This document shows, in pieces, positions 8,094-38,572 of a stretch of DNA of 64,000 bases; the stretch's first letter is position 1; each line of letters opens with the position of its first letter. The position numbers were made by a program, and so were the translations under genes. Origin of the DNA: Nostoc sp. PCC 7524 (lineage in GTDB: Bacteria > Cyanobacteriota > Cyanobacteriia > Cyanobacteriales > Nostocaceae). The DNA lies in assembly GCF_000316645.1 (NCBI RefSeq), contig NC_019684.1, forward strand, positions 806,001-870,000, given 5' to 3'. The notes under the pieces are model-generated. The model searched no databases, had not been told where the DNA came from, and was given only the letters and a program-made list of their open reading frames with translations.

Positions 8094-9524
8094 CTATAAC
8101 TTGATAAGAGTATTACCCATCCGCATCATCACCTTTCTGGGTTCGCTGGGTTTTTCCCCATTGCTATTTTCATGACTCCATTGAGCGATTTCCTGATCTA
8201 ATACCTTCTTTAATATCTGACGGTAAGGAAATTTCAAAGCAAGGGGATCAGACATTTGTTCTTCATCTGGTTTAATGATTCCTTGTGAAGTGGGCAAGTA
8301 TATTTTTTGAAATCTGCGATAGTAACCACCAAGATTAGCATAATCCCAACCTTTAAGTTGTTTTAAAATTCCATAAAGACTGGAAGCAGTCATATAAGTA
8401 AATAGATTTGCTAAAGGATTTCTACCGACTTGAGCTTGAATATTGGGTTCTGAAAAATCAAAATTCCAAATTTTCGAGCCATCAGGAAAAATGATTTCCA
8501 ATTGATAAATCACCTGCCATCGGCAATGCTCTATAAACAGAAACTTTTTATTTTTATTAATAAATTCAGCTAGATTAACACTAATTTCTTGACAAATTAC
8601 CTCCTGCATATAATCGAGATCATAATTATCGGGATTACCATCTATCATTTCATTCCCGACTTGCACTGGTGAAAAATCCAAATCTGCTCTCTGATCAGAA
8701 ATTTTGTTGACAAATTTGCATTGACCTGTTAAATGATTAAATTCGCCATGCTCAAAATTTAAAATATCGCCAGGATCTAACGCAAAAATATTTTCACCTA
8801 TTTCTGGACAAGCAATTTTGATATCATGACAAAACCGTTCTCGCGTTACCGGGAATACAATTTTATTCAGCCATGAAGCACCACCATTACATCTAAAAGC
8901 ATTAGAACCGGGAGCTACGGCTTTGGGCTGAATCGTACTAATCGTCTCGATTAACTTGCCATAAATATAATAGGGAAAAGACAAACTCATATTCATCTGA
9001 TAGTTCATCTCTAACATTGGTTGCCATGTCGCTAAGAGGAAATCTATTTTTTCATAGCGAGATTTAATCAGACGAATAGTATTAAGACTCACAACTGTAT
9101 CAACTTGGTTCCAAAAACATCCTGATTCGTCAGTAAAGATGACACCATATTCAGGTACTCGGTTTTCTGAACGAGTGGTTAACAAACTTGTGGAACCAAA
9201 TTTTACTTGATTAAAATCTTTTAAAGTGTAGATATAAGAATATCCTAATTGACGCAGACAGTCTTCTATCAATTTGTCTTCGGGAATTAGTACATCGACG
9301 TTTTTTGGTAAATAAGCCAGAGAACGAATATGAAAGTGATCTAAGTGTTGATGGGAAATGATTAATACATCAAATTCTGGAATATTTTCATGAATCACTT
9401 CTCTCTGTGGACAAATATCAAATAAGCCTTCTTGGTGTGGGTCCCAGAGAACTGGGTCCATTAAAATTTGACAATCTTGTGTTTTAACGAAAAGAGAGGC
9501 GTGTCCAATTACATGAATTTCCAT
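8094..9524 (-). CDS. Metallo-beta-lactamase-fold protein, RiPP cluster (MBL1)
   Basis: A 476-residue MBL-fold protein. The N-terminal half has the metal motif HQHLDH (near residues 88-93) in the context SHQHLDHFH, typical of UlaG/CMP-Neu5Ac-hydroxylase-like MBL proteins. The C-terminal ~200 residues (with SSLYGILKQLKGWDYANLGG) form an extra domain I cannot name. It is paralogous to the protein at 31845-33164, which has the same N-terminal start and SHIHVDH motif. It lies 17 bp after the arginase-like gene and is probably co-transcribed with it from the 11 kb bidirectional promoter region. MBL-fold enzymes include hydrolases and di-iron oxygenases (PqqB is implicated as a hydroxylase in PQQ synthesis), so a modification step on the peptide is plausible but unproven. 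Confidence 0.85.
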   Translation of the reverse strand: MEIHVIGHASLFVKTQDCQILMDPVLWDPHQEGLFDICPQREVIHENIPEFDVLIISHQHLDHFHIRSLAYLPKNVDVLIPEDKLIEDCLRQLGYSYIYTLKDFNQVKFGSTSLLTTRSENRVPEYGVIFTDESGCFWNQVDTVVSLNTIRLIKSRYEKIDFLLATWQPMLEMNYQMNMSLSFPYYIYGKLIETISTIQPKAVAPGSNAFRCNGGASWLNKIVFPVTRERFCHDIKIACPEIGENIFALDPGDILNFEHGEFNHLTGQCKFVNKISDQRADLDFSPVQVGNEMIDGNPDNYDLDYMQEVICQEISVNLAEFINKNKKFLFIEHCRWQVIYQLEIIFPDGSKIWNFDFSEPNIQAQVGRNPLANLFTYMTASSLYGILKQLKGWDYANLGGYYRRFQKIYLPTSQGIIKPDEEQMSDPLALKFPYRQILKKVLDQEIAQWSHENSNGEKPSEPRKVMMRMGNTLIKL

Positions 9525-9541
9525 ATTCTTAAAAGCTAGAA

Positions 9542-10993
9542 TTAATTTGCTAATTTTTGAACTAACATTGCAGCAGCAAGCTGGATGCGTTGATATTTTT
9601 TAGACATAGCTTGAGAATTAGATTCGTCTCCCATCTGGTGGTAAATTTTGGCGAGTACGTTCACAGGGGGACTAAATGCTGGCATTAGTTCGCTTACCTT
9701 CAAGAAATGCTCGCACGCCTGTTTTAAATTGCCTTGTTTGGCGTAAATTCTGCCGAGTAATGAATGAGCGCCACAGGCCGTCATATCATCTTGTAATGCG
9801 GCGTGCAGAAAGTTGGCTGCACGTTGGGGATATCCTGCTTGTAGAAGCAAATTTCCTAACCTAAAGTTGAGTTGGGGGTGGCGATCGCCTATTTTCTTGT
9901 AAATTTGATGGTGCTTGAACACCGGGCGCAAATCACCCAATTTGCTATACAACAGCCCTAACGTAAAGTGAGCGATCGCCAATTCCTGTTGATTCACTTG
10001 GCTTACTTCTAGACGTTGTTCCAATTCTTCTAAGTTTTGCCGCTCAAATTCTAAATTACGACTTGCTAATTCGCTGATGGAACGTAGAACACTATCCCGA
10101 TAATTAGCATCTAAACTGGCCGCTTGGTTTTGATAGTCTTGGGTAAGTTCAGGATGGGATTCTGCTAGGCTGAGTAGGTAGTAAGTTGCAGCACAGTTAG
10201 GGAACTGTTGTAGTTCCTCCAGGCAACCAGTGACAACAGATCCAGCGTCTCCTTGTCGCAATTTTTTGTCGAGATCGAATAAGCGCGAGTAATGGCTGGA
10301 ATTTTGGCGATCGCCTTGCCACAAAGCAGCAAGATAATCTGCAAAAAACCGATAACGCAATGGTGTGTAGCCACTACTAACTGAACGAGTGATAGTCACA
10401 AAATCGGATGTTAAAGGCAACTGTTGCAAGCTAGTAAATACCTCTTGCGGATCGATCCAAGGTTCGTCAGCAGGCAATTCAATAAAATAGTCGATATCGA
10501 TATCAATTAAGCTGTCTTCTGGCAGCTGCAATTGAGCTAGATCGCGATAGTCGCAAATAACTACATCCAATCCCAGCAATTTGCCTTCTACGATATTACC
10601 AACTAGCTTAAAACTCGCTAAATCTTCCAGGCTGAGTCCTTCCATTGATTGCAACTTGCCGAGAATCTCTTGGGTTTTTCCTTCCTGATTTTGCTCTTGT
10701 TGTTGCGGGGGATTCACCCAAATCAAACGTGAAATCATGCCCAAGCGATAAGCCGGATATAAGAAATCTTCAATACTATAGCTGTAACCGCGATCGGGCA
10801 GCATATGATGGGGCTTATCTAATTTAGCTAATTCCTCAGCCGTCGTACAATTTTCTAGTGCGGCCATGCGCTTCTGGCTGACTACCTGAAGGTCTATATG
10901 TGCATCTAAATAAATTAAAGTCTTACCTTGAATTCTCTGCTGCTTCCACTCTGGTAAGACAGCAGAATGCTCTTCAAATATGATAGTTTTCAT
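9542..10993 (-). CDS. UPF0489/peptide-arginase-like protein with C-terminal TPR repeats
   Basis: The 483-residue protein has an N-terminal arginase/UPF0489-like domain (about 1-235) with H9 in EEHSAVLP, metal-binding D30-A-H32-I-D34 and the second metal motif D164-I-D166-I-D168. About 250-480 is alpha-helical with TPR character (for example HFTLGLLYSKLGDLRPVFKHH). Peptide arginases of this type, such as OspR of the landornamide proteusin pathway, hydrolyse peptidyl arginine to ornithine plus urea with Mn2+. The adjacent divergent precursor has an Arg-rich core (RIRIR), the expected substrate. The TPR part could recruit the precursor or other enzymes. It heads a likely two-gene operon with MBL1. 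The family call rests on motifs and context; activity is inferred. Confidence 0.82.
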   Translation of the reverse strand: MKTIIFEEHSAVLPEWKQQRIQGKTLIYLDAHIDLQVVSQKRMAALENCTTAEELAKLDKPHHMLPDRGYSYSIEDFLYPAYRLGMISRLIWVNPPQQQEQNQEGKTQEILGKLQSMEGLSLEDLASFKLVGNIVEGKLLGLDVVICDYRDLAQLQLPEDSLIDIDIDYFIELPADEPWIDPQEVFTSLQQLPLTSDFVTITRSVSSGYTPLRYRFFADYLAALWQGDRQNSSHYSRLFDLDKKLRQGDAGSVVTGCLEELQQFPNCAATYYLLSLAESHPELTQDYQNQAASLDANYRDSVLRSISELASRNLEFERQNLEELEQRLEVSQVNQQELAIAHFTLGLLYSKLGDLRPVFKHHQIYKKIGDRHPQLNFRLGNLLLQAGYPQRAANFLHAALQDDMTACGAHSLLGRIYAKQGNLKQACEHFLKVSELMPAFSPPVNVLAKIYHQMGDESNSQAMSKKYQRIQLAAAMLVQKLAN

Positions 10994-11318: not shown

Positions 11319-11594
11319 ATGTCTAAAGAAGCTGTTGAACAAATGTTCCAAGCTGCTAGAGAAGATGCAGCTTTACAACAGAAACTAGAAAGTGCTAGTG
11401 GATATGCAGAAGCTGTGAAAATTGGTGCTGACAATGGTTTTAGCTTTACTGAAGAAGAAGCACAAGCTTTCCTAGCTGAACGTGGCTTAATAGAAGGAGC
11501 CGAAGGAGAATTATCAGAAGAAGCCCTGGAAGCTGTTGCAGGTGGACTGTTCGACAACTGGAGAATTAGGATCAGATGGGGTGGTGGCTGGTAG
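11319..11594 (+). CDS. Nif11-type RiPP precursor A
   Basis: A 91-residue precursor with a 76-residue Nif11/NHLP-like leader and a double-glycine site in EEALEAVAGG. The 15-residue core is LFDNWRIRIRWGGGW. The leader is acidic and Ala-rich as in this family; cleavage after GG would be by the C39 domain of the ABC transporter at 21149. The core offers three alternating Arg residues (RIRIR) for the neighbouring arginase-like protein, aromatic-X-X triplets (FDN, WRI, WGG) suited to radical SAM cyclophane formation, and Trp residues for the FAD halogenases. The start ATG has a good AGGAG 6-7 bases upstream. A stem-loop follows the gene (11697-11742). Which enzymes act on this core rather than on B and C is inferred from proximity only. 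Confidence 0.93.
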   Translation: MSKEAVEQMFQAAREDAALQQKLESASGYAEAVKIGADNGFSFTEEEAQAFLAERGLIEGAEGELSEEALEAVAGGLFDNWRIRIRWGGGW

Positions 11595-11980: not shown

Positions 11981-13480
11981 ATGGATGTACTGAAAGCTTG
12001 GCAAGAACTCCTACAACCAGAGAATGTTTTAACAGACGAAGCAAATATTGGTGCTGTCCAAACAGCAACATTTGCCACCAAACAGCGAGTGCTGGCAATG
12101 ATTCGTCCAGGCGATCGCACAGAAGTACAAGAATGCGTCAGAATTGCGAATCAATATCAAACTCCCATTTATCCTATCAGTCGGGGCAAAAATTGGGGCT
12201 TGGGTTCACGAGTTCCTGTTCAAGATAACTGTGTAGTGATGGATTTGAGCAGGCTGAACCGCATTGTTGAATATAACGAAAAGCTGGCTTACATCACTGT
12301 AGAACCTGGAGTCACCTTTCAACAAGTATATGAATACTTGCGTGATATTAAGTCCAACTTATTTCTGTCTGTGATTGGCGGTTCTCCCTATGCTAGTTTA
12401 ATCGGCAATGCCCTAGAAAGAGGAGATGGCTTTGGGCCTTATGGCGATCGCGCTAGTTACGTTTGTGGTTTTGAGGTAGTTTTACCAACGGGGGAACTTA
12501 TTCATACTGGATTTGGACGGTTTGCCCACGCCAAAACTACATCTGTGAGTCGTTGGGGAGTCGGCCCTTCCCTAGATGGCATATTTGCTCAGTCTAATTT
12601 GGGAATAGTTACTCAAATGACTGTGTGGTTAACACCCATACCCAAAGATTATCAATCTTTTAATTGTATTGTTAAAGATCATGATTCGTTAGAAAAACTT
12701 ATAGATATTATTCAAAAATTAATACTGCAAGGTACAATTCAGGAAAACTGTTTTAGTTTTTGGAATTGCTACAAAGTTTTAGCCAGAGAAGGGCGATATC
12801 CCTGGCAACTTTTAGGCGGAAAAACACCTTTTTCCCTCAAAGATTTAAAAGGTGTCGAACCTTGGGTTGGCAGTGGAAGTTTATATTGCGCCAGTCGAGA
12901 ACAAGGATTAGCAGTACGAAAAATAATTGAGGAAGCATTAACTGGACAAGTAGCTCAAATATTTTTTAGAGACGATGACGATAGCAGTGAATCATCAGAT
13001 TTAGGCCTTGGTGTTCCTAGTGAACTCAACATTAAAAGCACTTATTGGCGCAAGAAAATCAAAATTCCTTCTCATCTCGATCCCGATAGAGATGCTTGTG
13101 GTGTTCTTTGGCTTTGTCCACTATTTCCTTTCGATGGAAAGCAAATTGTCACAGTCTTAACAACCATTGAATCGACAATTAAATCCTATGGATTTGAGCC
13201 AAATATTGCCATGAGTTGTGCAACAAGTAGAAGTGTCAAAATGTTTATTGCTATTATGTATGATCGCGATGAATCTGACGCAGATCATCGAGCTATGTCA
13301 TGTCACGATCAGCTATTACAATTCTTGCTGCAATCAGGATATATTCCTTATCGGTTAGGGATTCAATCGATGAATTCTTTACCTGTCGCCACAGATGATT
13401 ATGATCAGTTAATTAGAAACTTGAAAAAGCAATTAGACCCTAATAATATCCTGGCTCCCGGTAGATACGATAGTCAATAA
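11981..13480 (+). CDS. FAD-binding oxidoreductase, vanillyl-alcohol oxidase / 4-cresol dehydrogenase type
   Basis: A 499-residue flavoprotein with a PCMH-type FAD domain. The stretch YPISRGKNWGLGSRVP and the following VMDLSRLNRI and YITVEPGVTF closely follow the FAD pyrophosphate loop of the 4-cresol dehydrogenase/VAO subgroup. The second half is the substrate domain, ending LDPNNILAPGRY, also typical. VAO enzymes oxidise para-alkyl phenols at the benzylic carbon, so a Tyr side chain of a precursor (cores B and C contain Tyr; A does not) or another aromatic residue is a plausible substrate. It is transcribed after precursor A and 222 bp before the first halogenase-like gene. Family confident, substrate inferred. 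Confidence 0.88.
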   Translation: MDVLKAWQELLQPENVLTDEANIGAVQTATFATKQRVLAMIRPGDRTEVQECVRIANQYQTPIYPISRGKNWGLGSRVPVQDNCVVMDLSRLNRIVEYNEKLAYITVEPGVTFQQVYEYLRDIKSNLFLSVIGGSPYASLIGNALERGDGFGPYGDRASYVCGFEVVLPTGELIHTGFGRFAHAKTTSVSRWGVGPSLDGIFAQSNLGIVTQMTVWLTPIPKDYQSFNCIVKDHDSLEKLIDIIQKLILQGTIQENCFSFWNCYKVLAREGRYPWQLLGGKTPFSLKDLKGVEPWVGSGSLYCASREQGLAVRKIIEEALTGQVAQIFFRDDDDSSESSDLGLGVPSELNIKSTYWRKKIKIPSHLDPDRDACGVLWLCPLFPFDGKQIVTVLTTIESTIKSYGFEPNIAMSCATSRSVKMFIAIMYDRDESDADHRAMSCHDQLLQFLLQSGYIPYRLGIQSMNSLPVATDDYDQLIRNLKKQLDPNNILAPGRYDSQ

Positions 13481-13702: not shown

Positions 13703-15034
13703 ATGAAAATTGCTGTCATTGGTGGAGGCACAGCAGGATATATTGCAGCATCACATATCAGCAAACATTTTCCTCAGTTTAACCTGTATCATATTTATGA
13801 CTCTACTATTCCCACAATTGGGGTAGGGGAAGGTACAATACCGTACTTTTTAACATGGTTAGATAAAATTACTAACTTGAGCTATGCCGAACTAGAAAAA
13901 CGATGCCATATTACTCGTAAATTTGGTATTAGTTTTGAAAATTGGGGAGTCGAACACGAACAGTTTTTTCATCATTTTTACCCCGTCGGTGAGACGTATG
14001 CTTATCATATTTCTGCCGTTGAAATCGTGAATCTTCTCCAAGAGTATATTTGTGCTACAAAAATTGATTGCCAGGTGATTGATGTTAAAAGTAACGGAAT
14101 TTCAGCCAATATAATCTTCGCAAATAATACTAATCTAGAAGTCGATTTGGCAATTGACGCGCGTGGTTTTCCCAAATCTTTTGATGATGATTACATTCAA
14201 ATGTCTTGGATTCCTACCAATGCAGCTTTAATTCGCCAAACTCCAGGAGATAATGATCATCTGATTGAGCTAAAAATGGGCAGCCATTTGTTGAAGTATC
14301 AATCTGCTACTAGAAGTATCGCTCGACCTCATGGTTGGATTTTTACAATTCCGCTTACCAATCGCACATCTTATGGTTACATTTATAACCGTAATCTTAA
14401 TTCTCTTAGCGAAATAGAAGCAGATTTTGATGAATTTTTTCTGCATGAAAAAATTACCTACAGTGGACAGCCTAAAAATATAAATTTTCCTAATTTTACT
14501 GTACGCAATTGTTTTGATGGCGCTGTTTTTAAAATTGGCAATACATCTGCATTTATTGAACCTTTAGAAGCAACCGCCATCGGATATATTTTGCAACAAG
14601 TAGAAGCAATATCTTGTTGGGTGCTTCGTGCTTTTGCTAAAGTTGATCAGCGAGAGAAATTAGATGAAACCCAGTTGAGAGTATTCAATCAATATTTTCT
14701 CAACTACGCTTATAAGATTTCCATATTTGTTGGCTGGCATTATACGATGGGATCTCGCTTCAATACAAAATTCTGGGAATTTGCTAAAGATAATTTTTAC
14801 CAAGAAATTACCAAATTAGAAAACGATCAGCTGTTAGAAGAATTTTATAGTCTTTTAGAATTGGCAGCCCAATTACCTCATCCAATTGAAAACTTTCCTG
14901 AATTCTCATCAACATTAGCAGAGATCACAAATATTTTCACAGCTTTGCTCGCAGGCTTTACCAAAACATTCGGACAGTGGACTAAGCCAAGTTTTACCGA
15001 AGTCGGATATGGTATTGGATATTTTTCTAATTAG
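13703..15034 (+). CDS. FAD-dependent halogenase-family protein 1 (divergent)
   Basis: A 443-residue member of the tryptophan-halogenase superfamily. It has the FAD motif GGGTAG (residues 7-12), GVGEGT (near 40-45), a Lys at residue 73 in TRKFGISFENW that aligns with the catalytic Lys of PrnA/RebH, and FIEPLEAT with the catalytic-type Glu. The hallmark WxWxIP is altered to GWIFTIP, and the usual EPLEST reads EPLEAT, so it may be a diverged halogenase or a related flavin oxidoreductase. It is about 90 residues shorter than the second halogenase (26544-28145). The start ATG follows GGAG by about 11 bases. It is probably co-transcribed with or close behind the VAO-type gene. Confidence 0.83.
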   Translation: MKIAVIGGGTAGYIAASHISKHFPQFNLYHIYDSTIPTIGVGEGTIPYFLTWLDKITNLSYAELEKRCHITRKFGISFENWGVEHEQFFHHFYPVGETYAYHISAVEIVNLLQEYICATKIDCQVIDVKSNGISANIIFANNTNLEVDLAIDARGFPKSFDDDYIQMSWIPTNAALIRQTPGDNDHLIELKMGSHLLKYQSATRSIARPHGWIFTIPLTNRTSYGYIYNRNLNSLSEIEADFDEFFLHEKITYSGQPKNINFPNFTVRNCFDGAVFKIGNTSAFIEPLEATAIGYILQQVEAISCWVLRAFAKVDQREKLDETQLRVFNQYFLNYAYKISIFVGWHYTMGSRFNTKFWEFAKDNFYQEITKLENDQLLEEFYSLLELAAQLPHPIENFPEFSSTLAEITNIFTALLAGFTKTFGQWTKPSFTEVGYGIGYFSN

Positions 15035-15101: not shown

Positions 15102-16199
15102 TCAAATAGGATTATTGTTGTTTCTAAGTTGCTCGGCACGTTGCTGCAAATTTTGAAAGAAATCCTGGTTAACAATCTCTGCCACTTCGCTTTCTTTTCT
15201 CGATTGATCAATTTGAATTTGTAATTCCATTACTTGTTGTTTTAGTTTCTGTTCTCGTTTGTGAAATTCGCGAGACATATGAATCGCAGCTGCGGCTTGG
15301 TTAGCCAAAGCACTCAAAAACTCTAAATCTTCCTCTGTATAGCGGACAAGAGGAGATAAATTATCGACGTATAACACCCCGATAGTTTCCTGATAGTTTT
15401 TGAGGGGGACACACATACAATTCTGAATTTTGTCTATAAAAACAGAGACAGAATCAGAAAATCGCTGATCGTGCTTGGGATCTTGAGTAATAATTGCATC
15501 CCCACTTTGATAAGCGACATTGACTATCCGGCGACTGTAAAACTGTTGGTCATGATTAATATAATCTCGTAACTTCACAGCTTTTGGTTCAAGTTGTTGA
15601 GACTCTTCGTCAAGCAAGAGAATTACTGCCCGATCAATTCCCATAGTTTGAAACAGCAAATCCAGGATTTTTTGGAGAATTTGTTCAGGTTCATCAGGAG
15701 AACAGAGCTGTTTGCTAACTTCTAACAGAATTTTGAGTTTGTTAACTGATTTCTGCTCACTATTGTGAGTATTAAATTTGAGAATTGACGCATCTTTAGG
15801 CTGCTGGTTGACTAAATTTTCTAGTTGAACTGCCATTTGAGGCAGAGGAATTTGTTTGAAATTACCGCTTAATACTTCTTTAGCATCGATATGATGCACC
15901 TGGGATGTAGTTAGGTGATGCACAAATTTGAACGGAGCTGTACCGCAACAAATAACATCACCATCACCCAGTTGATAGGTATTGATTGGCACTTGATTGA
16001 CAAAAGTATGATTGCGACTTTGACAATCTTGAATAGTCACTCCGTTGGCGGTGACGTGAATCTGTGCATGGTAACGGGATACGGTTTCTTCTAGTAAGAC
16101 AATAGTATTACCGATTTGGCGACCAATGGTGTTAACCCCTGGCTTTAATTCATAAACTCTCTCACTTGGCGTTCCAGGAGCGTAGATTAAATAAGACAC
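15102..16199 (-). CDS. FHA-GAF domain protein
   Basis: A 365-residue cytoplasmic signalling protein. The FHA domain is at about residues 15-95 (TIGRQIGN, SRYHAQIH, SRNHTFVN), which binds phosphothreonine; a GAF domain is at about 165-315 (ILLLDEESQQLEP, MCVPLKNYQETIGVLYVD); a coiled coil closes the protein. No catalytic output domain is present. The start is a GTG at 16197-16199; I see no strong ribosome binding site. It lies 79 bp after the MinD-like gene and is probably co-transcribed with it. Both sit, in opposite orientation, in the middle of the RiPP region. Confidence 0.87.
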   Translation of the reverse strand: MSYLIYAPGTPSERVYELKPGVNTIGRQIGNTIVLLEETVSRYHAQIHVTANGVTIQDCQSRNHTFVNQVPINTYQLGDGDVICCGTAPFKFVHHLTTSQVHHIDAKEVLSGNFKQIPLPQMAVQLENLVNQQPKDASILKFNTHNSEQKSVNKLKILLEVSKQLCSPDEPEQILQKILDLLFQTMGIDRAVILLLDEESQQLEPKAVKLRDYINHDQQFYSRRIVNVAYQSGDAIITQDPKHDQRFSDSVSVFIDKIQNCMCVPLKNYQETIGVLYVDNLSPLVRYTEEDLEFLSALANQAAAAIHMSREFHKREQKLKQQVMELQIQIDQSRKESEVAEIVNQDFFQNLQQRAEQLRNNNNPI

Positions 16200-16278
16200 G
16201 TTTACTGCTGGGATATTCTGTAGCTATTACTTTACATCAGTGCCAAAAAATAGACACTTAGCTGGTAACTGAAAACAA

Positions 16279-17055
16279 TTAAATTGTAACTGTCTTGCTA
16301 GTAATTTGTTTAGCCATTTTTTGCAGCACTGTACTGATAGGATGGTTACTGTATTTAATTGTAAAGATACCTTGACTAGCTAAACGTAGCATATCTGGAG
16401 AGTCAGGTAGGATACCCAACACTGGCACATTGTAAGTAGCTTGGACTTGTTGACACATTTGCTCAAAGTTGTATTCAGGTAAGGCTTTGTTAACGATGAG
16501 AAACAGATTAGGGACTTTGAGCCGCCGAGCCACATCCACTGTTACAGCTGTTCCCTGAAAATCTTGTTGATCTGGTCTCAAAATTAACAGCACAATCTGG
16601 GAAACTGTTAAGGAAAGTAACGTTTCTTCACTTAGGCCTGGATGGGTATCAACAAATAGATAATCTAGTTTTAACTCCTTAATCAGCTGCTGATAACCTG
16701 CAAATAATAATTCTGCATCAAAACCTTCTCTTAATATCCGAGAAATATCATTGATTTTGACGCTGGCAGGCACTAAATACAGTTTGCTAGTGGGAGTTCC
16801 CTGTCCTTCAAGAACATGACTCACATCACAGGCAACATCGCTAATTTTACTTCTACCCCAGAGAAAATCATTGAGTGTGCCATAGCCGTGCTTATTCCCA
16901 AATCCGAAGAGAATATGAATACCAGGGGAAGGCAAGTCAGTATCAATAATTCCAACGCGATTTCCCTCACGGGCAACCAGGGTAGCAAGATTAGCTGTGG
17001 TGTTAGATTTGCCAGTGCCGCCCCGATAAGAATGAATCGAAATAATTTTTGACAT
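16279..17055 (-). CDS. MinD/ParA-like P-loop ATPase
   Basis: ATPase with a deviant Walker A, SYRGGTGKSNTTANLA, an A'-motif IIDTDLPSPG and a switch region VDTHPGLSEET. The family acts as membrane- or partner-associated dimeric ATPases in positioning or regulation. I prefer the ATG at 17053-17055 (MSKIISIHSYRGG), where family members usually begin; an in-frame ATG seven codons upstream (17076) would add MFSLVNK. It is divergent from the export operon and followed by the FHA-GAF gene. No DNA-partition partner (ParB) is nearby, so plasmid or chromosome segregation is unlikely. Confidence 0.85.
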   Translation of the reverse strand: MSKIISIHSYRGGTGKSNTTANLATLVAREGNRVGIIDTDLPSPGIHILFGFGNKHGYGTLNDFLWGRSKISDVACDVSHVLEGQGTPTSKLYLVPASVKINDISRILREGFDAELLFAGYQQLIKELKLDYLFVDTHPGLSEETLLSLTVSQIVLLILRPDQQDFQGTAVTVDVARRLKVPNLFLIVNKALPEYNFEQMCQQVQATYNVPVLGILPDSPDMLRLASQGIFTIKYSNHPISTVLQKMAKQITSKTVTI

Positions 17056-17164
17056 TTTGTTAACTAAGCTAAACATAACAAAAATAAAACATAGAGTATA
17101 TTTTAAAACATCTTTTTAATTTAATATTATTCCTAACATACCTTTGTTGGCTTCTGCGGTAGTA

Positions 17165-30677: not shown

Positions 30678-31004
30678 TTACCAAGGACCCGGTATCCGAC
30701 GTGACGGCCATCTTGAACCGTAACCACCAGCAATGGCTTCGAGAGCTTCATCTGTAAGTTCGCCCTCTACCCCTACTGTTTCAGATAGACTTTCTAGTTG
30801 ACCATCAGCATTGACGCTGACTCCTAGGGATTCTAGTTCGCGCTGTAACTCTTCAGCAGTAAAATCAAGTCCTCGCTGTTTACCTAACTCTACAGTCAGA
30901 TTAAATGCTGACTCAGAATTGGAAGTGCCACTTGTTATTTGGTTTTGCAGCGCCTCATCTTGCTGAATAGCTTCGATCATTTTTCTGGCATTTTCGGCGG
31001 ACAT
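30678..31004 (-). CDS. Nif11-type RiPP precursor B
   Basis: 108 residues: a 94-residue Nif11-like leader ending EALEAIAGG and a 14-residue core YGSRWPSRRIPGPW. By my count the leader matches that of precursor C at 67 of 94 positions, while the cores share little beyond Tyr-Gly, Ser-Arg and the final Trp, so the pair arose by duplication with a fast-evolving core. The core holds three Arg (possible ornithine sites), aromatic triplets YGS and WPS for cyclophane formation, and Trp. The start has CAGGAG about 12 bases upstream. It lies downstream of C and upstream of the radical SAM gene, all leftward. Confidence 0.93.
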   Translation of the reverse strand: MSAENARKMIEAIQQDEALQNQITSGTSNSESAFNLTVELGKQRGLDFTAEELQRELESLGVSVNADGQLESLSETVGVEGELTDEALEAIAGGYGSRWPSRRIPGPW

Positions 31005-31272: not shown

Positions 31273-31599
31273 TTACCATTGACCGCATCTTGAACCACGA
31301 CTATTGCCGTAATAAAATCCACCAGCAACGGCTTCGAGAGCTTCTTCTGAAAGTTCACCCTCATCTCCCATAGATGGAGAAAGACTCTCTAGCTGACCAT
31401 CAGTATTAACACCAAATCCCCGTGCTTCTAATTCACGCTGAAATTCTTCAGCAGTGAAATCTAGTCCTTGTTGTTTACCTAACTCTACAGTTAGATTTAG
31501 TGCTGCTTCAGAGCTGGCGCTAGCACTTTCTATCTGATTACGAAGTGCTTCATCTTGTTGGAGAACGTTGATCATTTCTTTTGCATTTTCTGCGGACAT
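31273..31599 (-). CDS. Nif11-type RiPP precursor C
   Basis: 108 residues: a 94-residue leader ending EALEAVAGG and a 14-residue core FYYGNSRGSRCGQW. This is the only core with a Cys, and with Ser residues offers nucleophiles a YcaO could use; the YGN triplet fits radical SAM cyclophane formation and the two Arg fit an arginase. The start has AAGGAG about 12 bases upstream, and the leader/ribosome-site region GGAGATTTA is shared with precursor B. The cluster motif pair lies at 31686-31721, about 90-120 bp upstream, so this gene probably begins the C-B-radical SAM transcript. Confidence 0.93.
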   Translation of the reverse strand: MSAENAKEMINVLQQDEALRNQIESASASSEAALNLTVELGKQQGLDFTAEEFQRELEARGFGVNTDGQLESLSPSMGDEGELSEEALEAVAGGFYYGNSRGSRCGQW

Positions 31600-31844: not shown

Positions 31845-33164
31845 TTACTCTTTATCATCATCTCGATTGTCAAAAATAAATAGTAAAGTTTTAATTAATA
31901 ACCCAAATTTTGCTTTAATAGAAAGGTCTTTATTAGAATTAACTTTTAACGAAACACGATTGGAATACAAAATAAAGTCAATTAGTGATTCATCAAAATT
32001 ATGAAAAATTAGTTGTTCTACAATACTGGCAGGAATTGAGAGTTTTACCAGGTATTCATTAGATATATCTGTTAGTGGTAAATTATTCACAGAAACTTTT
32101 GAATTTTTGAAATCCATTGTGTAGACGATATTATGATGATTGCCCATTACCTCAAGAGCAATAATTTGATTAATAAATATAGCTGGTACTTTTGCAGCTA
32201 AACGTCCTTGTAGATAACTGACAACTTTTTCTCTCTCTTTTTCAGCATTGCCAAAGTTGAATGTGGGGATATTTTCTGCTTGTACATATTCAGTAATATT
32301 TTGCAAATAGTCTTGGAGGGTTTCTCCCCAAAAGTTTTGTTTCTGAGCAAATTTGACCATATCTAGCTCTAAATTAATGATATCTCCTGGTTGTAATATC
32401 CAATGTTTCGCTTGTGGTAAATGAGCTAACAGTTTATTTATAAATATAGTTGGAGTCATTCTCTCAAAGCCATTTAAATGTAAATGATCGAGTTGACAAT
32501 AACTCAACGTCATAGAATAGGGAATGATTTTCTCAGGCTTGAGAATTCTGATCAGGTCAATTTGGTATTGCAAAAACTTTTCTTCATCTTCTGCTACTTG
32601 TCTGCTGATAACTTCAGGCGAAGCATATAGTAAAATTGGTTGATAATTAGCAAAGTTAGTATAAAGCAGAAAAGCATAGTTAATATGAAATTTATCTGCG
32701 ATTTTAGATAAAGTTTTAGGAGTTAATTGACAATCATTCTGATGGAGAATAACTTTATCTTTGATTTTGACTAGCAAAATAGTATCGACTGGATCATCCC
32801 AGTAACTGGTAACTTCTACTGAGTCATTAAGTTTGAGGGTTTCGCCATTCTGCAAAAGAATAATTTTGTCATAGCCTATATCTCGGTATCTTTTTTCTAA
32901 ATCCGGTCTTTTGGCAGGTAAAAGAACTGTATCTACCTGATTTTTGAGTTGTCTGAGAGTTTCGGGATGGCTATGATCTACATGAATATGTGAACTATAA
33001 ACATAGTCCAATTTACCAAACATCTCTGGTGTTAGTTTTCTGGGTGGGAAGTGAAATAAATTTGTAGCGAAAAAGGGTTCGAGAAAGTAACACGGATCAG
33101 TCAACAGGGAAAAATTTTCTGCTCTCAATAATAAAGACGCATGAGTAATATATTCAATATCCAT
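31845..33164 (-). CDS. Metallo-beta-lactamase-fold protein, RiPP cluster (MBL2)
   Basis: A 439-residue paralogue of the protein at 8094-9524: the same MxIxxITHASL start, TDP turn and metal motif SHIHVDHSH (near residues 58-66). A C-terminal extension contains PAIFINQIIALEV and a membrane-unlikely beta-rich tail. It is transcribed leftward towards precursor C and divergent from tfuA. The spacer upstream contains the cluster motif pair, suggesting co-regulation with the precursors. Reaction unknown; MBL-fold enzymes range from hydrolases to di-iron oxygenases. Confidence 0.85.
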   Translation of the reverse strand: MDIEYITHASLLLRAENFSLLTDPCYFLEPFFATNLFHFPPRKLTPEMFGKLDYVYSSHIHVDHSHPETLRQLKNQVDTVLLPAKRPDLEKRYRDIGYDKIILLQNGETLKLNDSVEVTSYWDDPVDTILLVKIKDKVILHQNDCQLTPKTLSKIADKFHINYAFLLYTNFANYQPILLYASPEVISRQVAEDEEKFLQYQIDLIRILKPEKIIPYSMTLSYCQLDHLHLNGFERMTPTIFINKLLAHLPQAKHWILQPGDIINLELDMVKFAQKQNFWGETLQDYLQNITEYVQAENIPTFNFGNAEKEREKVVSYLQGRLAAKVPAIFINQIIALEVMGNHHNIVYTMDFKNSKVSVNNLPLTDISNEYLVKLSIPASIVEQLIFHNFDESLIDFILYSNRVSLKVNSNKDLSIKAKFGLLIKTLLFIFDNRDDDKE

Positions 33165-33355: not shown

Positions 33356-34774
33356 ATGATTTATGAATCTCTAAATGTAGCTGTATTCTTAGGCCCGTCT
33401 TTACCCAGAAATCAAGCTAGTCAAGTTCTTGATGCTCATTACTATCCCCCAGCCAGCAAGGGTGATATTTACCGTATTATGGCTTCAGGTGTGAAAACAA
33501 TCATTCTTATTGATGGGATTTTTCACGGTAAACCTTCTATTTGGCATCGTGAACTGATTCATGCCATCGAAGAAGGAATTCAAGTATTTGGTGCATCCAG
33601 TATGGGAGCCTTGAGAGCCTCAGAGTTAGAACCTTTTGGGATGGTTGGTCACGGTCAAGTGTTTACATGGTATCGTGATGGGCTACTGGAAAGTGATGAC
33701 GAAGTAGCTCTTTTACACGGCACGGAAGAGTCTGGCTTTGTCTCGATGTCTGAGCCTTTAGTAAATATTCGCTATACATTACTCAAAGCAGTAGAAGCAA
33801 ACTATTTGACGGTTGAACAAGCACACTCTTTAATCGATGAAGCTAAACAACTCTACTATCCACAGCGTTCTTACCAGCAGATACTTGAGAGTCGAGTAAT
33901 TCAAGACTTACCAACAGAGAGCGTAACTAAACTTAAGCATTACTTACTCCACAGCCACACTAACATCAAGCAAATTGATGCTATGGGAGTCTTGAAACTA
34001 TACGCCAACCTGAATCAAGAGCAAATATCAGAACCGAGGGGACGCTTTTGTTCTCCCTCTATAGATTTACAGTTCCAGCGATTAAACATGACTGGATTTG
34101 TGACTCCTACAGGAATGAGAGTTGGCAAAGATATTTTACAACTGCTCAAACAAGATATTAAACTGCAAGAGAGGATGCGATCGCAACTAGCAAAACGCTG
34201 CTTCCTGCTCACTTGGGCTAGACAGAATCAGATATGTTTTCCCACAGCACAATGGCAAACCTATCTTGCACAATGGCAACAAAAATATAACATTGTGAAT
34301 GAGCCTCAATGGTTACAATCCAATGGCCTAACTGCATTAGCCTCCCAAGAAATCTTGGGAGAGTATTTTTTAGTTGATTGGATTATTCAGCAAGGGCCGA
34401 ACTATTTCGGCATTGAGTGGAACTATCAAACAGCCCTGGACGCAGAGTTACGCTTAACTGGTAGTGTTGAATCACAGGTGAATCTGTGGGAACAGTTATC
34501 ACAGCGTCGTTTGATTGTAGAATGGGCGAGACAAAATGGTGTTGTGTGTCCAGAAATAGAACTAAACAGTTATCTAGAAAAATGGCAAACACTCAATAGC
34601 TTGATGGATGCAGAGGAAAATCAAGCTTGGCTAGTAGAGAAAGCCTTGGAAGCCTGGATTGTTGACAAAGAACCGGAGTATTTTGGCATTTCATGGTCTT
34701 TTCCGCAAGCATTATTTCAAGAATGGCAAATTACCGGAAAAGCTGCACAAATGTTGGTAGTCAATAGTCCATAG
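33356..34774 (+). CDS. tfuA: TfuA-like protein with duplicated C-terminal region
   Basis: A 472-residue TfuA-domain protein. Residues about 1-140 carry the TfuA signature (FLGPSLP, PPASKGDIYR, DGIFHGKPSIWHREL, GASSMGALRASEL). TfuA partners a YcaO enzyme, and YcaO-TfuA pairs are linked to backbone thioamidation (thioviridamide-type peptides, methyl-coenzyme M reductase thioglycine). The C-terminal half is unusual: two ~90-residue repeats (about 283-375 and 380-470) share WARQN, YL-xW, EYFGI-W and LTG-type elements. The next gene, ycaO, starts 26 bp after the stop. The sulfur source and target residue are unknown. Confidence 0.9.
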   Translation: MIYESLNVAVFLGPSLPRNQASQVLDAHYYPPASKGDIYRIMASGVKTIILIDGIFHGKPSIWHRELIHAIEEGIQVFGASSMGALRASELEPFGMVGHGQVFTWYRDGLLESDDEVALLHGTEESGFVSMSEPLVNIRYTLLKAVEANYLTVEQAHSLIDEAKQLYYPQRSYQQILESRVIQDLPTESVTKLKHYLLHSHTNIKQIDAMGVLKLYANLNQEQISEPRGRFCSPSIDLQFQRLNMTGFVTPTGMRVGKDILQLLKQDIKLQERMRSQLAKRCFLLTWARQNQICFPTAQWQTYLAQWQQKYNIVNEPQWLQSNGLTALASQEILGEYFLVDWIIQQGPNYFGIEWNYQTALDAELRLTGSVESQVNLWEQLSQRRLIVEWARQNGVVCPEIELNSYLEKWQTLNSLMDAEENQAWLVEKALEAWIVDKEPEYFGISWSFPQALFQEWQITGKAAQMLVVNSP

Positions 34775-34800: not shown

Positions 34801-35967
34801 ATGAGTCTTGATAAAAATTACACTTATGGGACACATCGTTTAATTCCCCCAGAGCAAACTTTAGCTAATATCAAACCGCACTTGCTAGCGATGGGAATTA
34901 CTCGTTGTGCTGATGTGACAGGATTAGATCGGCTGGGTATCCCTGTATACTGTGCGATTCGACCTACAAGGCCTTGGCTACAAGTCTCTAATGGTAAAGG
35001 CATCTCCCATGAAACGGCTAAGGTTTCGGCGTTAATGGAGGCGATTGAAGTTTTCCATGCCGAAACACCAGATGAGCGTTTGCGGCGCAGCAGTCTCAAA
35101 TCTTTGCAGTCGAGCGGCAGAGAGGTTATAGAGCCTCATATTCTCCCAGAATACTGTTCTCCAGCCTACTTTCATCCCGAATTTATCCTGGACTGGGTAC
35201 CAGGGCAAGAACTCATCACTAACACAGATGTCTGGCTACCCGCCAGTGCTGTTTATGATTGTTCTTCTCGTTATTCCCCTAACTTGTATCGGATTGGAAC
35301 TAATGGTTTAGCCAGTGGTAATCATCTATTAGAAGGGACGATTCATGGTCTTTATGAGGTGATTGAAAGAGATGCGATCGCACACCTTGTAGTCCAAGGG
35401 CGCTTAAATCTGCAAACAAGATGTAAATTTATTGATATTAATACGATAGATGATCCCTTTGTACAACCTTTATTAGAACGCATCAATACTACTGAGTTTA
35501 AGCTTGTTCTCATCTGGGTAAAAAGCTGTATTGCTATCAACACATTTTGGGCTATTCTGCTTGATCAAAATCCCTATAACCCTGCACTCATCGTTAATGT
35601 AGGCTATGGAACCCATCTTAGCCCTAGTGTTGCAGCCACACGAGCTATTACTGAAGCCGCCCAGTCACGATTGACATTTATCCACGGCGCACGGGATGAT
35701 CTCAACGCCGAGCAAATCTTTGAGAAAACTAACACCCATCGCCAACTGTACAATTATTTTGATCGCATCACCAGTACAACCTCCTGGCAAACATTAACTA
35801 ACTTTGCTCAACATGATTTATGGGCAGATTATAACTATGTTGTACAGTCTCTCTCGAAAGCTGGTTACAACAATATTTATCGTGTCGATTTGACAAGAGA
35901 ACCTTTTAATATTCCAGTTGTAAAAGTTTTCGTCCCTGGCTTAATCATGAATCATTCGTTATTTTGA
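34801..35967 (+). CDS. ycaO: YcaO cyclodehydratase-family protein
   Basis: A 388-residue YcaO with the ATP-binding motifs SALMEAIE (S76-E83), EGTIHGLYEVIERD (from E178) and AITEAAQSR (Q288-S289-R290, the classic QSR). YcaO enzymes phosphorylate an amide oxygen with ATP; they then close azoline rings or accept sulfide for thioamides. No E1-like/ocin-ThiF partner or FMN azoline dehydrogenase is nearby, and the C-terminus ends NHSLF without the PxPxP seen in azoline synthases, so with TfuA a thioamide is more likely than an azole. A weakly supported alternative is ring formation on the Cys or Ser of core C. Confidence 0.93.
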   Translation: MSLDKNYTYGTHRLIPPEQTLANIKPHLLAMGITRCADVTGLDRLGIPVYCAIRPTRPWLQVSNGKGISHETAKVSALMEAIEVFHAETPDERLRRSSLKSLQSSGREVIEPHILPEYCSPAYFHPEFILDWVPGQELITNTDVWLPASAVYDCSSRYSPNLYRIGTNGLASGNHLLEGTIHGLYEVIERDAIAHLVVQGRLNLQTRCKFIDINTIDDPFVQPLLERINTTEFKLVLIWVKSCIAINTFWAILLDQNPYNPALIVNVGYGTHLSPSVAATRAITEAAQSRLTFIHGARDDLNAEQIFEKTNTHRQLYNYFDRITSTTSWQTLTNFAQHDLWADYNYVVQSLSKAGYNNIYRVDLTREPFNIPVVKVFVPGLIMNHSLF

Positions 35968-36183: not shown

Positions 36184-37230
36184 TCAATCAGGCTTGAACC
36201 AACGATGACCAAAAGCTATATAAGCTTTTACTTCTAAAGGGCGACCGGGTTGATAAACTAGCTTGAGATGATTGATTGTTCGCCAAAAAACACTGATGCT
36301 ACCTTGGCTGATCCATGAGTCTAAGTCTTGTAAATTAACAGGCCAAAGTTCTGGGTGATCTTTTTTCTGAATTAACCCAGGCCATTTGAGAAGGGCATCA
36401 CGTTTTTGAGGTGTGCAGCATTCCATTGCTACTAAAAGGTTGAGGAATTCAGTCCAACGGGGTTCTTTTTTGGGTTGTTGATCCAAATAACATTCCAGTC
36501 CGATTCTAGAGCCAATCTGTTCTGCAATATCAAAGCACAAAACTATGCGATCGCTCAAGGGCTGAATCAGGGTGATCATCTCAGCTAAATCTGCCTTGAC
36601 TGGTTCGCCTTGAATTTGAGCTAAGTAAGCGGGAATCATTTGAGCTGATAATCCACTGACATTGATTCGCAGTGGTTCTCCAGAACGCGATCGCATTGCC
36701 CCTATTTGACTGATGCCCACACCATCAGGTAAGGCGTTGACGCACTGCAATACTAAAGCCTGGCGCTGCTGCTCAATCGGACAATTCTGCAACCATGAGA
36801 TGAGTTGGAAAAACTTGGATAAAGCTTCACTACTCTTATCTTTAAAGACTTCTCCCCGCAAACTAAAAAACCAACAACCTACCGTTAACCCATCTGTTTC
36901 GCCATCAAGATCAAATTCCAGCCAAATATCCTCAACTGCTTCCTGGGGTAGAGAATTCACAGTTGTCCATTCTTGACAGAATTGGCGGATTTCTTGCCAG
37001 AAGGGATATGATAAGAGCGATTCGGCGATCGCAATTTTCATAGGCTGTATGCCTACTGATAAATCTACTTGTGGTTGGTCAGCTGCCAAGCGGCATTCTA
37101 ACAGTGTTGGTGACAAAGGTGGTAATAGTTGAGCCACCTGTTGTATAGAAGTTAATTGTTGTGGGGAAACGAGTACATCTGCGAGATAAGGAATAACTAA
37201 GCGCAAGTAATCTTGCAATAAGTAATTCAT
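36184..37230 (-). CDS. Unrecognised 348-residue protein in RiPP cluster
   Basis: I do not recognise this protein. It is acidic, soluble-looking and has no TM helix, P-loop, flavin or metal motif. Alternating amphipathic strands occur (IWLEFDLDG, LRINVSGL, IVLCFDIAE, RIGLECYL, LEVKAYIAFGHRW) and could fit an alpha-beta fold, but no motif supports a specific call such as a prenyltransferase. It lies convergent to ycaO and divergent from the flavoprotein at 37427, so its place in the RiPP cluster is suggested by position only. The start ATG (37230) is the only one near the N-terminus in frame. Confidence 0.7.
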   Translation of the reverse strand: MNYLLQDYLRLVIPYLADVLVSPQQLTSIQQVAQLLPPLSPTLLECRLAADQPQVDLSVGIQPMKIAIAESLLSYPFWQEIRQFCQEWTTVNSLPQEAVEDIWLEFDLDGETDGLTVGCWFFSLRGEVFKDKSSEALSKFFQLISWLQNCPIEQQRQALVLQCVNALPDGVGISQIGAMRSRSGEPLRINVSGLSAQMIPAYLAQIQGEPVKADLAEMITLIQPLSDRIVLCFDIAEQIGSRIGLECYLDQQPKKEPRWTEFLNLLVAMECCTPQKRDALLKWPGLIQKKDHPELWPVNLQDLDSWISQGSISVFWRTINHLKLVYQPGRPLEVKAYIAFGHRWFKPD

Positions 37231-37426
37231 TTTATTAATAAATAATGAAAATTATTGAAAATTATACTTGTTAATTACCAAATTTTATTTTAAATTTTTT
37301 GATAAAAAATATTCTTGCTATGTTACATTTTTTACATTACTTTACATAGTTTGTTTTTTTCAAGTCGTTCTACTTACAATAAAAATCATTCTGAATTTCA
37401 AACTGATAAAAATAAACTGATAAATA

Positions 37427-38572
37427 ATGAATTACGATTACGATCTGATTATAGTTGGTGGAGGACCTGCTGGCTCAACAATGGCTTTATCAGCCGCTAA
37501 ACAGGGACTAAAAGTGTTACTCGTAGACAAAGAAAAATTTCCCCGTGACAAAATTTGTGGCGATGCTTTAACCGTAAGTTCTGTAGAAATTTTGCAGGAA
37601 TTCCATCTCATAGATAAACTGCTGCTAGAACCTCACGGTTGTGCTAATAATATGATTTTTTACTCAGAAACTGAGCGTTTAATGCCTCCCAGTATGAATG
37701 ACGCTCAATATATTTCTACATCAAGAAGATGGATATTCGATAATGTGTTATTTCAAGCAGCAAAAGCCTGTACTGAGACAAAAGAGGGATTTAAAGTTGA
37801 AAACTTGCTGATGCAAAACGGTTGGGTATTTGGCATTCAAGGAACATCTGCGGATGGGGAAAAACAGGAATACACCGCTAAAGTAGTAGCTGGCGCAGAT
37901 GGTTGTAGCTCGGTAGTAGCTAGAAAATTAGGTTTATATCAATCTTTAAAACAGGATGGAGCAGTGGCGACTCGTGCCTACTATCGAAACCTTGATGTTT
38001 CGGGCAGCGAATTAGAATTGTACTATCTGCCAGAATGTAGACCTGGTTATTTTTGGATTTTCCCAGTAGATAAAGAAACTGTCAATGTCGGAGTAATCTT
38101 ATTTGATCAAAACCTCAAAAGTACAGGTATTTTTCCGCCACAAATTCATCGCCAGTTAATCCAATCTCCCTTATTAAAAGCAAGATTTCTCCAAGCAGAA
38201 CCAGTGGGAAATATTCAATGTTGGTATTTACCTTTAGCCAAAACAACCAGAACCATACATGGTAACGGTTTTATTCTATCAGGCGATGCGGCTGGTTTAA
38301 TTGATCCGTTAATTGCTCATGGAATTGATCGAGCTATGGTGTCAGGAAAAATTGCTGGTGAGCTGTTAGGTTCGATTTGCAGAGGTAATGATTACAGTGC
38401 TGAAGCATTGCAGCCTTATGCTGATGCTGTCTGGAAACATTTTGGTTACATATCTCAATTTGCTGTTAAGTTTCGTGATCGTCTTCAGCACCAACCATTA
38501 GAGCCAATCAACTCCTTGTTTTACAAAAGTAAGGGAAAGTTGATTCCACATACTACGGGAGAAAATCTCTAA
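37427..38572 (+). CDS. FAD/NAD(P)-dependent oxidoreductase, geranylgeranyl reductase type
   Basis: A 381-residue flavoprotein with a Rossmann GGGPAGS (residues 11-17), DKEKFPRDKICGDAL (CGDAL is a GGR-family hallmark), ADGCSSVVARKLG and SGDAAGLIDPL near the C-terminus (FAD diphosphate motif). The family reduces prenyl double bonds or acts as monooxygenases/halogenase relatives. It may be part of the RiPP region, or a lipid/chlorophyll-type reductase unrelated to it. A halogenase role is less likely because it lacks the Lys and WxWxIP motifs of the two halogenase-family proteins. Confidence 0.85.
   Translation: MNYDYDLIIVGGGPAGSTMALSAAKQGLKVLLVDKEKFPRDKICGDALTVSSVEILQEFHLIDKLLLEPHGCANNMIFYSETERLMPPSMNDAQYISTSRRWIFDNVLFQAAKACTETKEGFKVENLLMQNGWVFGIQGTSADGEKQEYTAKVVAGADGCSSVVARKLGLYQSLKQDGAVATRAYYRNLDVSGSELELYYLPECRPGYFWIFPVDKETVNVGVILFDQNLKSTGIFPPQIHRQLIQSPLLKARFLQAEPVGNIQCWYLPLAKTTRTIHGNGFILSGDAAGLIDPLIAHGIDRAMVSGKIAGELLGSICRGNDYSAEALQPYADAVWKHFGYISQFAVKFRDRLQHQPLEPINSLFYKSKGKLIPHTTGENL

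What the first reader, a model, noticed from the sequence alone, without database searches (positions are those of the whole stretch)
8094..38572. RiPP region combining arginase-, radical SAM-, YcaO/TfuA-, halogenase- and VAO-type enzymes with Nif11 precursors
The region holds three Nif11-type precursors, an NHLM exporter, and enzyme families tied to ornithine formation, cyclophane formation, thioamidation, halogenation and aromatic oxidation. I know clusters with some of these pairings, but not this full combination. If all act on the same peptides, the product would be a heavily modified cationic peptide (or family). Inclusion of the genes at the right end (36184-38572) is weaker.
Basis: partly seen in the sequence, partly recalled or inferred. 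Interest (0 to 1): 0.9.

Follow-up and report, generated by a model that had tools for sequence, protein, structure and literature searches.

The report
Two joined cyanobacterial peptide-tailoring gene clusters
A filamentous cyanobacterium carries two neighbouring gene sets, apparently sharing one export pump, that look built to decorate two different families of small peptides, one of them with an unusually long list of chemical changes that may include an overlooked lipid-type attachment.

The parts
4424..8059 (+). WD40-repeat protein flanking module A; role unknown, conserved neighbour
   Evidence: Pfam WD40; 82% identical and in the same place in Anabaena 4-3
8094..9524 (-). MBL1, long MBL-fold protein (module A), possible oxygenase
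   Evidence: PF13483; weak PDB matches to diiron monooxygenases, E 0.003-0.009; also beside arginase in G001 and G030
9542..10993 (-). ARG, peptide arginase domain (UPF0489) fused to TPR repeats (module A)
   Evidence: PF12640; motifs EEH, DAHID, DIDIDYF against the published motifs
11319..11594 (+). PREC1, Nif11 precursor, core LFDNWRIRIRWGGGW (module A)
   Evidence: PF07862, TIGR03798 over cut-off
11981..13480 (+). VAO, VAO/p-cresol methylhydroxylase-type FAD oxidase
   Evidence: PF01565; PDB E 6.5e-67; beside HAL2 in Goleter and Nodularia
13703..15034 (+). HAL1, divergent Trp-halogenase homologue (monooxygenase or halogenase)
   Evidence: PF04820; altered motifs WIFTIP and EPLEAT, middle insert missing, in 2 of 2 orthologues
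15102..17076 (-). FHA-GAF protein and ParA/MinD-type ATPase, conserved accessory genes
   Evidence: Pfam; same order in G007, also near module B in G014
17144..19489 (+). DUF7005 protein and TIGR03896 cyclic-nucleotide-binding transport-associated protein
   Evidence: beside the exporter in G007, G014 and G001
19520..26310 (+). NHLM exporter: HlyD, ABC1 with C39 peptidase, ABC2
   Evidence: TIGR03794, TIGR03796, TIGR03797 all over cut-off; PF03412
26544..28145 (-). HAL2, PrnA-like flavin-dependent tryptophan halogenase (module B)
   Evidence: PF04820 486 bits; PrnA E 7e-122 with key motifs kept
28173..28787 (-). 2OG-Fe(II) oxygenase (module B)
   Evidence: PF13759 and TIGR02466 over cut-off
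28878..30401 (-). radical SAM/SPASM peptide maturase (module B), probably thioether-forming
   Evidence: PF04055, TIGR04085; best PDB 5wgg E 3e-17; relatives beside Cys-containing small ORFs
30678..31004 (-). PREC2, Nif11 precursor, core YGSRWPSRRIPGPW, no Cys (module B leader)
   Evidence: PF07862; tandem copy of PREC3, 78% over 300 nt
31273..31599 (-). PREC3, Nif11 precursor, core FYYGNSRGSRCGQW (module B)
   Evidence: PF07862; orthologues in G007, G014, L021 and databases
31845..33164 (-). MBL2, long MBL-fold protein (module B), possible diiron oxygenase
   Evidence: PF13483; profile match to diiron monooxygenases 8a90 E 7e-11 and CmlA E 7e-7
33356..34774 (+). TfuA (module B)
   Evidence: PF07812 E 4e-45; NF033432 234.2 bits, cut-off 235.2
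34801..35967 (+). YcaO (module B), probable thioamidation enzyme
   Evidence: PF02624; best PDB MJ1094 6pe3 E 8e-39
36184..37230 (-). X36, ABBA-fold (DMATS-like) putative peptide prenyltransferase (module B)
37427..38572 (+). GGR, geranylgeranyl-reductase-family flavoprotein, possible prenyl reductase
   Evidence: TIGR02032 190.2 bits, cut-off 158.8; intact in G007, decayed fragments in G014, not found in the 21.5 kb held of L021

Best explanation
Two adjacent but separable Nif11 RiPP pathways share one NHLM exporter. Module A (8094-15034) makes ornithine-containing peptides from short-leader Arg-bearing precursors, using a TPR-fused peptide arginase plus MBL1, VAO and a divergent halogenase homologue. 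Module B (26544-38572) acts on a longer-leader precursor with a core of mostly 10-14 residues. Proposed steps, all inferred from enzyme families: the leader guides the enzymes; YcaO/TfuA installs a backbone thioamide; the radical SAM enzyme makes a thioether from the single Cys; the 2OG oxygenase (and perhaps MBL2) hydroxylates; HAL2 halogenates Trp, most likely the terminal one (22 of 23 cores hold a single Trp, last or, in P0101, last but one; counted by hand); X36 prenylates Trp or Tyr and GGR may reduce the prenyl chain; the C39 domain of ABC1 then cuts after the double Gly and exports. Shown here: gene content, conservation, separability, purifying selection, motifs, and the predicted fold of X36. 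Not shown: any reaction or product.
For: Module B's eight genes (X36, YcaO, TfuA, MBL2, Nif11, radical SAM, 2OG, HAL2) occur together in the four loci whose radical SAM protein is 86% or more identical, window included. Module A is collinear from the WD40 gene to ABC2 in Anabaena 4-3, on another contig. G007 has one NHLM ABC1 over the family cut-off, on the module A contig, so B there would export in trans if it uses an NHLM pump. dN/dS 0.07-0.24 for 15 of 15 pairs compared. HAL2 keeps the PrnA-like motifs. YcaO is nearest the thioamidation enzyme MJ1094 among solved structures. Radical SAM scores best against CefB, TIGR04463 and PapB models and 5wgg, and 4 of 4 loci with 66-71% relatives have Cys-containing small ORFs beside it. 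Cys in 20 of 23 and C-terminal Trp in 22 of 23 module B cores. X36 has the ABBA prenyltransferase fold. Precedent: MppC geranylates and MppI brominates a Trp of a Nif11 precursor.
Against: No product or assay exists. Loci with 66-71% radical SAM relatives (G000 second copy, L023, L024, L093) show no YcaO, TfuA, 2OG or HAL2 relative in the stretch held, so that enzyme type also occurs without module B. PREC2 and database cores P0099 and P0100 lack Cys, so a thioether cannot be universal. The radical SAM gene misses the cut-offs of the maturase models shown (best 142 of 600 bits), and the dynobactin maturase model DynA (101.7 bits), recalled as making non-thioether crosslinks, outscores SCIFF (82.8). 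TfuA misses its cut-off by 1 bit and YcaO falls short (249.9 of 365). A shared ABBA fold shows no activity. GGR is missing or broken in 2 of 4 module B loci. C-terminal Trp also ends 8 of 15 other Nif11 cores in fetched loci, so it is weak as a halogenation mark. Distant long-MBL relatives also sit in loci that look non-RiPP.
Confidence: 0.6

Rival explanations
1. One pathway: all enzymes act on the same peptides, giving a single ornithine-, cyclophane-, thioamide- and halogen-bearing product.
For: Both halves lie together here and flank one exporter; PREC2 joins a module B leader to a core with three Arg, so arginase could act on it.
Against: Halves occur apart in Anabaena 4-3, and the right half occurs without the left in the stretches examined of Goleter and Nodularia; leaders differ (42% identity) and follow their module in every locus seen; 21 of 23 B cores have 0-2 Arg.
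Confidence: 0.12
2. The radical SAM enzyme makes a carbon-carbon crosslink (cyclophane or other) or another modification rather than a thioether.
For: Three of 23 cores lack Cys; FYY opens 16 of 23 cores as the script counted, 17 with P0089, whose core it parsed too long; DynA scores 101.7 bits, and cyclophane families YhhB 57.8 and FxsB 47.7.
Against: The thioether model PapB scores higher (117.6; PapB is called thioether-forming in PMC12703449); best solved relative 5wgg, recalled as thioether-forming CteB; relatives next to Cys-containing ORFs in 4 of 4 loci.
Confidence: 0.35
3. X36 is a non-catalytic ABBA-fold protein or uses another donor, and GGR is an unrelated neighbour.
For: Fold alone shows no function; no sequence match to any prenyltransferase family; GGR missing or broken in 2 of 4 loci.
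Against: Residues E45, R182, K276, K323, K335 and Y337 are invariant in 41 of 41 homologues; a Nif11-type ORF was found beside X36 in 9 of 14 loci examined; MppC shows that Nif11-guided ABBA prenylation exists.
Confidence: 0.3
4. YcaO/TfuA makes an azoline or other change at the conserved Cys rather than a thioamide.
For: One Cys in most cores; YcaO and TfuA both fall below the curated McrA-thioamidation cut-offs.
Against: Nearest solved structure is MJ1094, recalled as the methanogen thioamidation YcaO; the literature reads adjacent YcaO-TfuA as thioamidation.
Confidence: 0.25

Closest known systems
mpp cluster of Moorena producens (PMC11791876, PMC12715784)
   Same: Nif11 precursor, flavin halogenase acting on Trp, ABBA prenyltransferase (MppC), arginases, oxygenase
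   Different: mpp is built on a LanM lanthionine ring and has a terpene synthase; here no LanM, but radical SAM, YcaO/TfuA, VAO, MBL and a separate Cys/Trp core family; whether X36 and MppC are homologous in sequence could not be tested
Landornamide-type and other peptide-arginase RiPPs (OspR, FlmR, OhkR; PMC12703449)
   Same: UPF0489 peptide arginase with EEH, DXHXD and DIDxDYF; N11P (Nif11) precursors are among the known partners
   Different: arginase here is fused to TPR repeats and scores 35.9 of 350 bits on the FlmR/OhkR model
Thioamidated RiPP clusters with YcaO-TfuA (PMC8120280)
   Same: adjacent YcaO-TfuA; that survey already lists 18 cyanobacterial TfuA clusters, with Nif11-like precursors in Anabaena, and its Figure 4 legend lists an indole prenyltransferase among the extra genes of the drawn clusters (which cluster cannot be told from the legend)
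   Different: the main text never uses the word halogenase; the combination of radical SAM, halogenase, 2OG oxygenase and MBL with YcaO-TfuA is not described in what I read; its supplement was not readable, so overlap with module B cannot be excluded
ABBA/DMATS aromatic prenyltransferases (FunA, MpnD, PriB, CymD)
   Same: fold of X36 over about 280-300 of 348 residues
   Different: 9-13% identity; no sequence-family match

Membership tests
Nif11/NHLM RiPP cluster | Nif11 leader precursors ending in a double-Gly site | tested here: met
   PREC2 and PREC3 pass Pfam but are 1-3 bits under the TIGR03798 cut-off
Nif11/NHLM RiPP cluster | NHLM exporter with C39 peptidase domain | tested here: met
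   three TIGR models over cut-off, PF03412
Peptide arginase (pfam12640) | conserved metal-binding motifs | tested here: met
   EEH, DAHID, DIDIDYF; rest of EEH(N/H)EAF is altered to EEHSAVL
Peptide arginase (pfam12640) | Arg to Orn conversion on the precursor | not testable with these tools
   needs co-expression and MS
Thioamidated RiPP | adjacent YcaO and TfuA with a precursor | tested here: met
   the four module B loci
Thioamidated RiPP | reaches curated McrA-thioamidation models | tested here: not met
   TfuA 234.2 of 235.2, YcaO 249.9 of 365; these models are for McrA, so this lowers only that label
Cyclophane-forming radical SAM (YhhB, FxsB) | over the curated model cut-offs | tested here: not met
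   57.8 of 445 and 47.7 of 370 bits
Ranthipeptide/thioether radical SAM | over a curated model cut-off | tested here: not met
   PapB 117.6 of 340, SCIFF 82.8 of 425; may work like one, membership unproven
Flavin-dependent Trp halogenase: HAL2 | GxGxxG, catalytic Lys, WxWxxP and EPLEST motifs (roles recalled) | tested here: met
Flavin-dependent Trp halogenase: HAL1 | the same motifs | tested here: not met
   WIFTIP and EPLEAT in 2 of 2 orthologues; Lys kept
ABBA prenyltransferase: X36 | ABBA fold | tested here: met
ABBA prenyltransferase: X36 | prenyl transfer to a peptide side chain | not testable with these tools
   no assay
Cyanobactin prenyltransferase (LynF/TruF, TIGR04445) | sequence match to the family | tested here: not met
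   0 NCBIfam families for X36 at E 0.01; one search also empty but its control genomes did not ring
Lanthipeptide | lanthionine synthetase gene | tested here: not met
   none among the proteins of 8094-38572 scanned
Single combined pathway | halves always found together | tested here: not met

The most novel reading that the evidence does not exclude
Module B makes a new class of hypermodified Nif11 RiPP: one short core carrying backbone thioamide, Cys thioether, hydroxyl, halogenated Trp and a prenyl group that a dedicated reductase then saturates; and X36 founds an unrecognised family of Nif11-associated ABBA peptide prenyltransferases (relatives in 42 of 291 genomes of the order), at least one fused to a methyltransferase.
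Probability: 0.3. Interest if true: 0.82.

Novelty: new variant of a known kind. Interest (0 to 1): 0.6.

Why it matters
It corrects a one-product reading into two testable pathways with defined substrates, and it gives a function-level hypothesis for a widespread protein with no Pfam family. If module B works as proposed, one short peptide would be a substrate for at least six different modifying enzymes (radical SAM, YcaO/TfuA, 2OG oxygenase, halogenase, prenyltransferase, MBL protein), useful for leader-guided peptide engineering and for asking how enzyme order is set.

Tried and rejected
Rejected: single pathway; cyclophane label as the leading reading; HAL1 as a proven halogenase. Defence-system reading: PADLOC gave no match for four of five proteins tested, and for the WD40 protein a match to one model (HEAT-ARM_XIII), which I take for repeat similarity.

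Led nowhere: arginase search with the whole protein was swamped by TPR matches and was repeated with the arginase domain. A DNA pattern for the MppE core found nothing in 11 genomes, nor a shortened one in the 125 fetched loci, so X36 could not be compared with MppC. MBL2 fold could not be modelled, so only a profile search was made. Distant MBL2 relatives in L090, L091, L094 and L095 lie in loci that look non-RiPP, the last three with sugar-pathway-like genes, judged by eye from translations. Strain identity (I recall Nostoc sp. PCC 7524 from replicon sizes) was not confirmed; a paper search on it was uninformative. A search for MBL-fold diiron oxygenases in RiPPs listed nothing. In one search the core of P0089 was parsed too long by the script; the distinct-core count is 14, not 15, and the 16 'other' precursors listed include one module B precursor (L021), so 15 are others.

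Full report
Gene content. ORF calling and Pfam/NCBIfam scans give, left to right, 22 genes: MBL1, ARG (UPF0489 plus TPR), PREC1, VAO, HAL1, FHA-GAF, ParA, DUF7005, TIGR03896 protein, NHLM exporter (HlyD, ABC1, ABC2), HAL2, 2OG oxygenase, radical SAM, PREC2, PREC3, MBL2, TfuA, YcaO, X36, GGR. The genome is held as G000, 6.72 Mb in 3 contigs; the window is C2:806001-870000.

Two modules. The radical SAM protein has full-length relatives (68% or more) in 3 of 59 genomes searched, the own genome (with a second copy) included; a scan of genome contigs confirmed 6 loci among 84 pattern matches, five at 68-94% and one partial at 34%. Four loci (window, G007, G014, and L021 of an uncultured Nodularia), those with 86% or more, share X36, YcaO, TfuA, MBL2, Nif11, radical SAM, 2OG and HAL2, 4 of 4 each. 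VAO is beside HAL2 in 2 of 4; the NHLM exporter is beside the module in 3 of 4. The four loci with 66-71% relatives (G000 second copy, L023, L024, L093) show no YcaO, TfuA, 2OG or HAL2 relative in the stretch held, though L024 and L093 have an X36 relative. The arginase half is not seen in the 40 kb examined of G014 or the 21.5 kb held of L021; G014 also gave only a TPR match to the whole arginase protein. In G007 the arginase half lies on contig C17, collinear with the window from the WD40 gene to ABC2 (four Nif11 genes in place of one), while module B is on C26. From contig lengths and positions the two are at least about 268 kb apart (my arithmetic). G007 has one NHLM ABC1 over the curated cut-off, on the module A contig; G000 and G014 have two each. 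Sharing of one exporter is plausible but inferred.

Arginase. With the arginase domain as query, 5 of 291 genomes of the order match at E 0.001 or better, three of them (own genome included) at 50% identity or more. In G001 and G030 the arginase sits with MBL1, an X36 relative and an NHLM exporter in other RiPP clusters; in G030 the arginase frame is short (192 aa) and lacks the middle. Metal-binding motifs are kept in the window, G007 and G001 against those listed in PMC12703449 (parts 1 and 2 of 5 and a term search read).

Halogenases. HAL2 matches PrnA at E 7e-122 and keeps the Lys, WxWxxP and EPLESTG motifs (catalytic roles recalled). HAL1 has W-F for W-W, Ala for Ser in EPLES, and lacks about 55 residues, in 2 of 2 orthologues. 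I treat it as a flavoenzyme of unproven halogenase activity.

Radical SAM. Of the 25 NCBIfam families shown (65 matched), only the general SPASM domain model TIGR04085 is over its cut-off; best scores are CefB 142, TIGR04463 140, PapB 118, geopeptide 115, DynA 102, SCIFF 83; YhhB 58 and FxsB 48. DynA is recalled as making non-thioether crosslinks, so the thioether reading is a preference, not a result. Best PDB match is 5wgg (E 3e-17), which I recall as CteB. The four loci with 66-71% relatives all have small Cys-containing ORFs beside the gene, found by eye except for one flagged by profile.

YcaO/TfuA. YcaO matches MJ1094 (E 8e-39) before the cyanobactin cyclodehydratases. TfuA homologues occur in 15 of 291 genomes of the order. 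PMC8120280 (sections 12 and 13 and passages read) reports 18 cyanobacterial TfuA clusters, Nif11-like precursors in Anabaena, and in the Figure 4 legend an indole prenyltransferase among extra genes; so those pairings are not new.

GGR. TIGR02032 190 bits, cut-off 158.8. Of ten genomes searched by handle, only G000 and G007 hold a close full copy; G014 holds two broken fragments beside its X36. None in the 21.5 kb of L021. This placement suggests, but does not show, a role with X36.

MBL1 and MBL2. They are 26% identical over 275 columns. A profile of 37 MBL2 relatives matches diiron monooxygenases (8a90 E 7e-11, CmlA E 7e-7) well ahead of other MBL proteins (0.26 and above), over the MBL domain only. 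One source names 4 of 39 relatives 'UDP-MurNAc hydroxylase' and 2 UlaG. Relatives at 22-31% lie in loci that look non-RiPP. An oxygenase role is a guess.

Precursors. Of 24 database hits, 22 carry a module B leader by eye (P0081-P0102, which include those of the window, G007 and G014). With PREC2 that makes 23 cores: Cys in 20, C-terminal Trp in 22, Gln/Asn before the final Trp in 21, 14 distinct; 22 are 10-14 residues long and one (P0101) is 21. The orthologue in L021 is a further case that fits. Module A-type cores: 7 of 7 end in Trp, 1-3 Arg, none with Cys (five from the two loci and two database proteins of A-type leader whose loci were not seen). Other Nif11 cores in fetched loci, picked by a motif: 8 of 15 end in Trp, all eight from three loci with X36 relatives, so terminal Trp is not specific to halogenase clusters.

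Literature. mpp (PMC11791876, passages read; PMC12715784, parts 1 and 2 of 3 and passages read): Nif11 MppE, LanM, halogenase MppI, ABBA prenyltransferase MppC that geranylates Trp82 and needs the leader, two arginases. A 2024 paper on polycyclic isoprenoid ribosomal peptides (Hubrich et al.) was seen only in a reference list and is not held. PMC4603692 was seen in passages. Ten paper searches listed no paper that I recognised, from title and start of abstract, as describing this gene set; only the papers named here were opened, and most subscription papers and all supplements were out of reach.

Verdict. Real, conserved and under selection; two pathways, not one; module B has the richer chemistry and an overlooked putative prenyltransferase. 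Interest 0.60, new variant of a known kind.

Noticed in passing
window 43198-52893: GntR/UTRA regulator followed by PhnG, PhnH, PhnI, PhnJ and amidohydrolase-type genes: a carbon-phosphorus lyase (phosphonate) operon.
   Followed up: partly
window 54261-54341 (- strand): PsrR1 photosynthesis-regulating small RNA, 68 bits against a gathering score of 42.
   Followed up: no
G000 C2:6124602-6126098 (L013/L014): A second copy of the radical SAM gene (68%) in the same genome, next to a 65-aa ORF holding GWGGSCGSNCDGF and near a gene that looks by eye like a glycosyltransferase.
   Followed up: partly
L048, with similar long frames in L049, L050, L054: X36-type proteins of about 610-640 aa beside a Nif11-domain ORF; L048, the one tested, has a SAM methyltransferase domain at its C-terminus.
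   Followed up: partly
window 30724-31618: PREC2 and PREC3 are a tandem duplication, 78% identical over 300 nt, with strongly diverged cores.
   Followed up: partly
L045 9282-9860 (G030): Arginase homologue with a short frame lacking the middle part, beside MBL1 and X36 relatives of normal length.
   Followed up: no
L086 11377-13191 and similar frames in L087, L093: A protein of about 600 aa near X36 relatives in other Nif11 loci; the L086 copy has no Pfam match.
   Followed up: no
window 38774-41840: ShlB/FhaC-type outer-membrane secretion protein and a PEP-CTERM protein just right of the cluster.
   Followed up: no
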